From NCBI RefSeq assembly GCF_965363235.1, contig NC_134838.1:5213001-5277000 (forward strand): a stretch of DNA of 64,000 nucleotides, written 5' to 3'. Source of the DNA: Mytilus galloprovincialis. Its lineage: Eukaryota > Mollusca > Bivalvia > Mytilida > Mytilidae. The notes beneath the pieces were generated by a model. It was not told where the DNA came from. It worked only from the letters and a program-made list of their open reading frames with translations, and ran no database searches. Positions 28,201-31,200 of the stretch are shown one piece after another; within the stretch, counting starts at the first letter, position 1; every line of letters starts with the position of its first letter. The translations under genes were made by a program, and so were the position numbers.

Positions 28201-31200
28201 TCAGTGAAAACTTGCCTTGAATGACAGGAGCTGTTAAACCTTTCATTCCTTTCTCTAATATAAATCCTCTGATTTTATTGTTGTCTCTATCACACTTACC
28301 CCATACAATGAATACATCTGCAATAGGGGAGTTTGTAATCCTGCAAAAACAAAAATCTACTGTAGAACTTGTACAGTGTCAGCAATTAATATCAAATAGG
28401 CATGTTCTATCAGGGGTGATCCAGAACATCTCTGACTGAGCATAATTAACTGGTAGGGGGTCATTTTTTTTTATCTCATTGTTTGTATTGTATTATAAAA
28501 ATTATAGATATTGTAATGTTTATGCCCTTTGGGGCCCATAATTGGAAAATAAAATATCATTTAATACTTGTAAAATTGCTTTCAGGCATGTAAAAATAGT
28601 CCCCATAGGCCAACAGATCTAACTACAATTTTCCAAAAATTTAGCTCTAGGCCTGTAGATTTAAAAGTTTGTCATGAAGACTGATATGGTAATGAAAACA
28701 AGCAAAATATGCTCAATTTGAGGAATCAGTACAGCCTTTGACAATGAGCAAAACTTTTTGAACACAAATAATCAATATATATCATGTGAATCATTGAATG
28801 AACAGTTTTGCCACGACTAATCAAGATTTAGTACCATTCAATGTGAACGCTTTACTGGATGGATTGTATCTGGCTTTAGTTTCTATAGACATGACTTACC
28901 AAGATTTAGTACCATTCAATGTGAACGCTTTACTGGATGAATTGTATCTGGCTTTAGTTTCTATAGACATGACTTACCAAGATTTAGTACCATTCAATGT
29001 GAACGCTTTACTGGATGAATTGTATCTGGCTTTAGTTTCTATAGACATGACTTACCAAGATTTAGTACCATTCAATGTGAACGCTTTATTGGATGAATTG
29101 TATCTGGCTTTAGTTTCTATAGACATGACTTACCAAGATTTAGTACCATTCAATGTAAATGTTTTACTGGATGGGTTGTATCTGGCTTTAGTTTCTATAG
29201 ACATGACTTACCAAGATTTAGTACCATTCAATGTGAATGCTTTACTGGATGGGTTGTATCTGGCTTTAGTTTCTATAGACATGACTTACCATGATTTTGT
29301 ACCATTCAATGTGAACGCTTTACTGGATAGATTGTATCTGGCTTTAGTTTCTATAGACATGACTTACCAAGATTTTGTACCATTCAATGTGAATGCTTTA
29401 CTGGATAGATTGTATCTGGCTTTAGTTTCTATAGACATGACTTACCAAGATTTTGTACCATTCAATGTAAATGTTTTACTGGATGGGTTGTATCTGGCTT
29501 TAGTTTCCATAGACGAAGGATCACTTCCATGGTTAGGTTCTGTTAGTCCAAAACACCCTATTAGCTCCCCTTTTGCTGGAAAAAAAGTAATTATCTTTTC
29601 TAACAATTCTTAAATGTATTTATATCTTTTAAAATAGCTTACATAAAAATAAAGATATGTAGTACAAATTTACAGGACTAAAACAGCTAAAGGTCAATAG
29701 CTGTTTTAAACAAAATTTCTGATAAACAGTATATAAGTTTGCGCCAACAGGACAATGTAAGTACTGGGACACAATGCCCCACTCTAAATCCTCCTCTGCA
29801 GCAACTCAGTAATAATTATTCAATCAGTTCTTAAGTTGTGATAAAAATCTTCTTGTCTACAAATGTCTCTTATTTTTTTAAACTTTCCTTCAAACGTATC
29901 TAATTTTATACTTGTCTAACAATATATCAAATATTGTACATCAAGTGTATCTTGTTTTTTTATCTTGCCTACAAATGTATCTCATTTTGTACTTGTCTAC
30001 AAACAAAAAGACAAATGTTTCTTAGTTAGCACTTGCCAACAAATGAATCTAATTTGTACTTATGATATATTTATATAATATTGTTCTAACCTACAAATTT
30101 ATCTATAAATTCATTTAATTTTGCACTTGTCTACAAAGGAAACTAATTCTGTACTGGCATACAAATGATTTCAATTTTGAACTTGTCTATATAAATGTAT
30201 ATATATCATTCTTACCTAATTTCGGTAAGTATTTTTGTTTCTGTTCTTCTGTACCATATTCATTTATTGGATGCATAACTAATGAAGACTGGACACTCAT
30301 GGCTGATCTGTATCCACTGTCTACCCTTAAATATATTACATGGAAGTATGAATATATATTGTAGAGAAAAGATAGATCTGGCATGGTCAGCTGGAATAAT
30401 GTAACAAAGTAGAAATTGGGCTCCAGTAGGGTACACCCCCTTTTAGTTTAAAAGGTCACCTATCTATAAGTTTCTTTATTTTCTGAACTTTATCCACTTT
30501 AGAAACATCTTGTGAGCCTGCAAATACACCTTTCACAAAAATCAATATTTATAAAAAAAAAAAATCTTTAAATTAAAAAAAACAAGAGGCTGTCACAACG
30601 ACAGCAAACCGGATTTGTTAACATTTATTTGTGTCCTGCCAATATCACAAGAACCATAACTGATGAACGGTGAAAGTGAAAATCTTCAATATCAAATTTG
30701 ACCTCCATTTTGTCATCAGTATCAACATATTAAAATTTGAAAAGCTGAGGTTGAATGGTTCATGAGTAAATGCAACAACATGAATGGAAAAGCCATTTTT
30801 CAATCTTTCAAGAACCATAACTCCTGAAGGGTAAAAGTCAAAATCGTCATTATTGAACTTGACCTCCATTTTGTCATCAGTAACAACATAATAAAATTTG
30901 GAAAGCTTTGGTTGAACAGTTCATGTGTAAATGCACGGACACGACAGGAAAAGCCATTTTTCAATCTTTCAAGAACCATAACTCCTGAACGGTAAAAGTC
31001 AAAATAGTCATTATTGAACTTGACCTTCATTTTGTTGTTAGTAACAACATATTAAAATTTTAAAAGCTTTGGTTGAACGGTTCATGAGTAAATGCACGGA
31101 CAACATTTGGTTACCGACCGACCGCCCGCCGTACATCCCCAAATCAATAACCGACATTTTTGTCACAAAAATCCGGTTAAAAATAAAAAAATGTATAATC

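What the first reader, a model, noticed from the sequence alone, without database searches (positions are those of the whole stretch)
28822..29515. GCDH exon 6 border amplified into nine tandem copies with eight identical 5' splice sites
The 78-bp unit joins the last 68 bases of a coding exon to the first ten bases of its intron. The pre-mRNA therefore offers a ladder of eight identical GTAAGT donors, each preceded by authentic exon sequence; only the first gives a normal protein, because TGG is followed by TAA on read-through. A housekeeping enzyme tolerating this implies strong preference for the proximal donor, or regulated unproductive splicing. Near and far units carry different shared variants, so the array has grown locally and more than once.
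Basis: partly seen in the sequence, partly recalled or inferred. Interest (0 to 1): 0.85.

Follow-up and report, generated by a model that had tools for sequence, protein, structure and literature searches.

The report
Exon edge copied into splice-site ladder
In a mussel gene for a basic enzyme, the end of one exon and the start of its intron have been copied nine times in a row, giving eight identical splice sites of which only the first can make the normal protein; the same thing recurs in other genes of this genome, which makes it a natural experiment on how cells choose where to cut RNA.

Summary
Confirmed: on the minus strand of a Mytilus chromosome, the 3' end of a GCDH exon (29575-29446) and its donor are repeated as a 78-nt unit (68 exon + 10 intron nt). 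Eight copies keep GTAAGTCATG; the ninth has ATTAGTCGTG. The GCDH frame is intact; any distal donor meets TAA directly after the normal Trp codon.

It is not unique. The neighbouring gene FARSA has a decayed six-copy donor ladder (43715-44183) whose first junction is shared with a tandem FARSA paralogue. Of 11 GTAAGT-ladder arrays listed on one chromosome, 8 start at the end of an apparent coding exon (three secure by homology: RTCB twice, ALG12-like; one weak; four by anatomy alone). Of 9 mirrored-motif arrays none does; one is an acceptor ladder. Five further acceptor ladders, picked by eye, end in coding exons.

Best reading: tolerated exon-edge minisatellites in which the exon-proximal site is used, as published tandem-donor assays and human CBS 844ins68 suggest. 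No RNA data were available, so donor choice is inferred. Regulated unproductive splicing is possible but unsupported. Whether arrays prefer exon edges is unsettled: my controls disagree.

The parts
28815..29514 (-). 78-nt x 9 array: exon end (68 nt) + intron start (10 nt)
29446..29575 (-). GCDH exon, 130 nt (KGELIGCF...LNGTKSW), acceptor ctttttttccag, donor 1 at 29445
29436..29513 (-). unit 1 with donor 1 (29445); the only donor that gives the normal frame
28890..29435 (-). units 2-8 with donors 2-8 (GTAAGT from 29367, 29289, 29211, 29133, 29055, 28977, 28899)
28812..28889 (-). unit 9, donor replaced by ATTAGTCGTG; runs into the rest of the intron
28118..28340 (-). next GCDH exon (ITNSPIADV...); intron from donor 1 is 1105 nt
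25223..31957 (-). GCDH gene, nine assigned exons (first coding exon(s) not found)
43647..43762 (+). FARSA exon, seventh of the 12 assigned (FTEMPTNNF...DTFFVS), donor 1 GTAAAC
43715..44183 (+). FARSA donor ladder: six copies of exon end + intron start, spacing 70, 72, 70, 76, 98; at the donor place GTAAAC x3, ATAGTC, GTAATC, GTAAAC (the last after ATCAT)
   Evidence: extent from merged TRF rows
34523..48662 (+). FARSA gene, 12 assigned exons

Best explanation
A minisatellite arose by tandem duplication across the 3' border of a GCDH exon, so that each unit carries real exon end plus donor. The spliceosome pairs the exon's acceptor with the nearest, first-transcribed donor, so copies 2-9 are removed as the first part of a 1.1-kb intron and the array is close to neutral. 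Distal donors, when used, give an exon with TAA right after the Trp codon, 74-542 nt before the next junction, which by the usual 50-nt rule (recalled) should be degraded by NMD. Unit turnover (unequal exchange or conversion) keeps most donors alike without selection on them. The same process acted on FARSA, RTCB and other genes, and in mirror form at acceptors, where the last acceptor must be used. Shown: anatomy, reading frames, recurrence, shared FARSA junction. Inferred: use of donor 1, NMD, neutrality.
For: GCDH has intact exons and phases and a full-length match. Unit 1 alone has ATG (Met, as in the aligned 1siq); copies 2-9 have ATA. Stop one nt after junction 1 and NMD-compatible distances for donors 2-8. 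In designed libraries two identical consensus donors lead to predominant use of the first (PMC6783452, section 7 read). CBS 844ins68 duplicates an intron/exon junction and still yields normal mRNA (PMC2630376, passages). The FARSA ladder sits in an intact frame; its first junction is shared with a paralogue 22 kb on (192 aligned bases, 87.5%), whose exon is under purifying selection (dN/dS 0.03, dS about 1.1, only 38 codons), so such a ladder can persist for long. Reading on past donor 1 meets a stop in 10 of 10 donor ladders whose exon frame I assigned (GCDH, FARSA, L048, L065, L069, L073, L078, L079, L080, L082).
Against: No transcript was seen, so donor choice is unproven. The library work used two donors in reporter constructs, not eight; it speaks itself of earlier conflicting evidence, and I recall classical work with duplicated 5' splice sites in which the downstream site won. 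For tandem acceptors the same paper finds no order preference, so its rule does not explain the acceptor ladders. No retrocopy with a spliced junction turned up for the GCDH exon, FARSA exons 7-8 or the RTCB exon.
Confidence: 0.8

Rival explanations
1. Regulated unproductive splicing: U1 occupancy or SR/hnRNP levels shift use to distal donors, lowering GCDH output; ladder length tunes this.
For: Eight near-identical donors remain; every distal choice is NMD-compatible.
Against: Distal donors are not detectably more conserved than the rest (p 0.34; low power); the unit 9 donor is dead; some FARSA donors have decayed and the paralogue's second is dead; no special RNA structure (z -1.5 to -0.3, three segments); ladders sit in unrelated genes.
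Confidence: 0.12
2. Assembly artefact: copy number or the array itself is wrong.
For: Tandem arrays are a common place for such errors; no reads could be seen.
Against: Units carry distinct, ordered variants; similar arrays occur in other genes and one junction is shared with a paralogue. Exact copy number remains open.
Confidence: 0.04
3. The array is used as antisense coding sequence: the plus strand is open for 271 codons across it.
For: Open frame 28798-29613 (+) with 26-aa repeats.
Against: A unit of 3 x 26 nt keeps a frame that is open in one copy open in all similar copies; no independent sign of coding was looked for.
Confidence: 0.02

Closest known systems
[quoted passage not shown]
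   Same: A tandem copy of an exon edge with its splice site; normal mRNA is made because the exon-proximal site is strongly favoured (PMC2630376, passages).
   Different: Acceptor side, two copies, a human polymorphism; here donor side, eight donors, and recurrence across genes. The passage says 'splice donor', although the title of the cited Romano et al. 2002 speaks of 3' splice site selection.
Internal tandem repeats at exon-intron boundaries of human segmental-duplication genes (PMC2812944, passages incl. part of the abstract)
   Same: Minisatellites at exon-intron boundaries; 27 intron modifications after manual inspection.
   Different: On average 30-bp units x 4 in recently duplicated human genes, with novel introns and alternative transcripts; here conserved genes, the splice site itself multiplied, and no new intron noticed.
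Designed tandem 5' splice sites (PMC6783452, section 7 and passages)
   Same: Identical donors in series; the first is predominantly used.
   Different: Two donors in reporter libraries.
hTERT intron 6 VNTR (PMC3948165, start of abstract in a listing)
   Same: A tandem repeat in a gene that affects splicing.

Membership tests
Tolerated splice-junction duplication (844ins68 type) | Tandem copy spans an exon-intron junction, splice site included | tested here: met
Tolerated splice-junction duplication (844ins68 type) | Coding frame intact only if the exon-proximal site is used | tested here: met
Tolerated splice-junction duplication (844ins68 type) | Normal mRNA is the main product | not testable with these tools
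   no RNA data
Exon-boundary minisatellite (PMC2812944) | Units of minisatellite size at an exon-intron boundary | tested here: met
   78 nt x 9; FARSA 70-98 nt spacing, six copies
Exon-boundary minisatellite (PMC2812944) | Copy number varies between alleles or paralogues | tested here: inconclusive
   FARSA six against two in its paralogue; GCDH: one assembly, no second copy found
Regulated unproductive splicing (poison isoform) | Alternative site introduces an NMD-competent stop | tested here: met
   (distances; the 50-nt rule is recalled)
Regulated unproductive splicing (poison isoform) | Alternative site conserved above background | tested here: inconclusive
   0 of 10 against 10 of 68 columns variable, p 0.34; one species only
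Regulated unproductive splicing (poison isoform) | Isoform ratio changes with condition | not testable with these tools
   no RNA data
Intron gain by tandem duplication | Repeat supplies both a new donor and a new acceptor that are used | not tested
   by eye no acceptor with a pyrimidine tract inside the unit; no scoring was run

The most novel reading that the evidence does not exclude
In Mytilus tandem arrays form or survive preferentially at exon edges, so that a large number of genes carry ladders of identical donors or acceptors; allele-to-allele differences in ladder length then leak a variable share of transcripts into NMD and act as a common source of expression variation.
Probability: 0.15. 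Interest if true: 0.85.

Novelty: new variant of a known kind. Interest (0 to 1): 0.62.

Why it matters
How a cell picks among several equal splice sites is usually tested with two-site constructs. Here evolution has built ladders of a few to some forty similar donors or acceptors, several in conserved genes, where one end site must win for the gene to work. Mussel RNA-seq could show how strict that choice is, whether it decays with ladder length, and whether donors and acceptors differ. It also warns gene-annotation pipelines: each ladder invites false isoforms.

Tried and rejected
Circular-shift test of arrays against splice borders in the window: 2 of 39 borders lie in arrays, 4.8 expected, P(2 or fewer) 0.19. 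I do not rely on it as a null for how arrays arise, because a grown array covers far more than its founding unit. Counting founding units only, four short-unit arrays (unit 30-110, at least 3 copies) would touch 0.13 borders and touch 2 (P 0.008); that subset was defined after seeing the data.

CCT chaperonin loci: 30 of 49 listed matches came with DNA; in 0 of 30 does an array with a unit of 20 nt or more cover an exon border as judged by the match ends +/- 40 nt, except that in L034 a two-copy 24-bp repeat touches the end of the match (read; no GT in its unit).

Ladder counts as such: GTAAGT ladders are no more frequent than mirrored TGAATG ladders per motif (5 clusters in 2.9 Mb; 4.7 expected from the control rate), so an excess of arrays at donors is not shown. 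What differs is where they sit: 8 of 11 against 0 of 9, p 0.0014. Counting only the three arrays (two genes) whose gene is secure by homology: 3 of 11 against 0 of 9, p 0.22. The calls were made by eye.

GTGAGT ladders: several clusters listed, no flank read, so no count is given. Retrocopies as fossil transcripts: none. RNA folding of three ladder segments: unremarkable. Pfam gave nothing better than E 0.26 for the L048, L065, L069 exons and nothing for the L073, L078, L080 exon pieces, nor for L095, L091/L092 and the IFT172-like exon; PDB nothing for L048 at 0.1. PMC8724738 (passages) was looked at for exon definition and not used.

Full report
What is there. The window lies on a 133-Mb contig of a 1.38-Gb genome. 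A 770-codon frame of the foot-protein-1 decapeptide (that it marks Mytilus is recalled) supports 'mussel'. On the minus strand, TRF finds 28815-29514 as 9.0 copies of a 78-nt unit at 96% match. Laid out unit by unit, each is 68 nt of exon end plus 10 nt of intron start; eight read GTAAGTCATG, the ninth ATTAGTCGTG.

The exon is real. Nine exons with GT-AG borders and matching phases join into one frame that aligns with glutaryl-CoA dehydrogenase over 391 residues (1siq, E 7.8e-213). The array sits on the 3' end of the 130-nt exon 29575-29446; the next exon, 28340-28118, supplies the G of the Trp codon. Staying in the exon past junction 1 gives TGG TAA; use of donors 2-8 would put that stop 74 to 542 nt before the exon junction, a distance at which NMD is expected (50-nt rule, recalled).

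History of the array. Units 7 and 8 are identical; units 1 and 5, 4 and 5, and 2 and 3 differ at two sites each; unit 9 differs from the others at 4-9 sites. Unit 1 alone has ATG where copies 2-9 have ATA; the aligned 1siq also has Met there. So the coding copy stayed apart at its start while the rest turned over in more than one step. The DNA search found the unit nowhere else in the assembly.

Not unique: FARSA. The neighbouring plus-strand gene is FARSA (12 exons assembled; phenylalanyl-tRNA synthetase alpha 3l4g, E 8.6e-220). Its exon 43647-43762 ends TATCAG|GTAAAC, and exon end plus intron start recur, six copies in all, spacing 70-98 nt, with donors in various states of decay. A second copy of this exon lies at C1:5278968, 22 kb on, 87% identical; the tenth assigned exon also has a copy on that side, 78% identical (C1:5283515), so this looks like a tandem gene duplicate. 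The copy has the same first junction from intron back into exon, and ATTATT where its second donor would be. Over 38 codons dN/dS is 0.03 with dS about 1.1 (few sites, so rough). The simplest reading is that the first duplication predates the gene duplication; conversion between the paralogues or a repeated event at the same spot is not excluded.

Not unique: elsewhere. Pattern searches for three GTAAGT spaced 50-80 or 80-110 nt listed 11 separate arrays on contig C1, up to 2.9 and 4.15 Mb (each list is cut at 100 places in order of position). In 8 of 11 the first unit is the end of an open frame that starts after a plausible acceptor: L079 and L080, two exons of RTCB (PDB E 1.8e-33 and 7.2e-08); L073, in an Alg9-like mannosyltransferase gene (an upstream exon E 9.7e-15; ALG12 by recall; the ladder exon itself had no Pfam match); L082, EGF-like (Pfam 0.0082, below its cut-off); L048, L065, L069 and L078 by anatomy alone. 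For L058 and L081 no exon was seen; L083 fills its stretch and cannot be judged. Mirrored control TGAATG: 9 arrays up to 3.0 Mb, none seen at a donor (L093 read on one side only); one, L091/L092, is an acceptor ladder with a 50-nt unit whose last copy runs into an open frame. Its two ends lie about 2.7 kb apart, so some 54 units if unbroken; only the ends and the listed matches were seen.

Acceptor ladders. A search for three TTTTTCAG gave 361+352 matches against 193+209 for the mirror. Since they were picked, 5 of 5 is not a rate.

Mechanism. In each ladder whose frame I assigned, the normal frame needs the exon-proximal site: the first donor or the last acceptor. For donors this is what PMC6783452 reports for two equal sites (section 7); the same paper finds no such order rule for acceptors, where CBS 844ins68 is the precedent. 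Pairing across the exon (exon definition) would cover both, but this is inference. Distal donors show no sign of selection, RNA folding is ordinary, and there is no transcript evidence either way.

Is it more than chance? The array itself plainly is. That arrays prefer exon edges is a lead: location differs from the mirrored control (8 of 11 against 0 of 9, p 0.0014), but with only homology-secure genes it is 3 of 11 (p 0.22), the number of GTAAGT ladders is not raised, the coverage test in the window gives fewer hits than expected, and 0 of 30 CCT matches carries one. For scale: of 27 GTAAGT sites in the window, the ladder counted once, 2 are donors of the two genes; donors of other genes there are unknown.

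In print. Nine full-text searches showed, in the listed titles and abstract starts, no report of donor or acceptor ladders in molluscs; one search matched 242 papers of which 15 were listed, and the library holds open-access papers only.

Noticed in passing
window 43715-44183: Six-copy donor ladder in FARSA, more diverged than the GCDH one and partly decayed.
   Followed up: yes
L099 (C1:5278700-5279700): Tandem FARSA paralogue exon with a two-unit ladder sharing the same junction; second donor dead.
   Followed up: yes
L091, L092, L094-L098: Acceptor ladders: intron end + exon start repeated, last copy continuing into an apparent coding exon.
   Followed up: partly
L079, L080 (C1:3110100-3114800): Two separate donor ladders in one gene, RTCB, about 3.5 kb apart.
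   Followed up: partly
window 25223-48662: GCDH and FARSA are neighbours here as (recalled) in human 19p13; the link may be ancient.
   Followed up: no
window 44553-44998: 30-nt x 15 minisatellite in a FARSA intron, not at a border.
   Followed up: no
L087: 53-nt x 22 array, apparently intronic, with what looks like a coding exon (by eye) a short way beyond its end.
   Followed up: no
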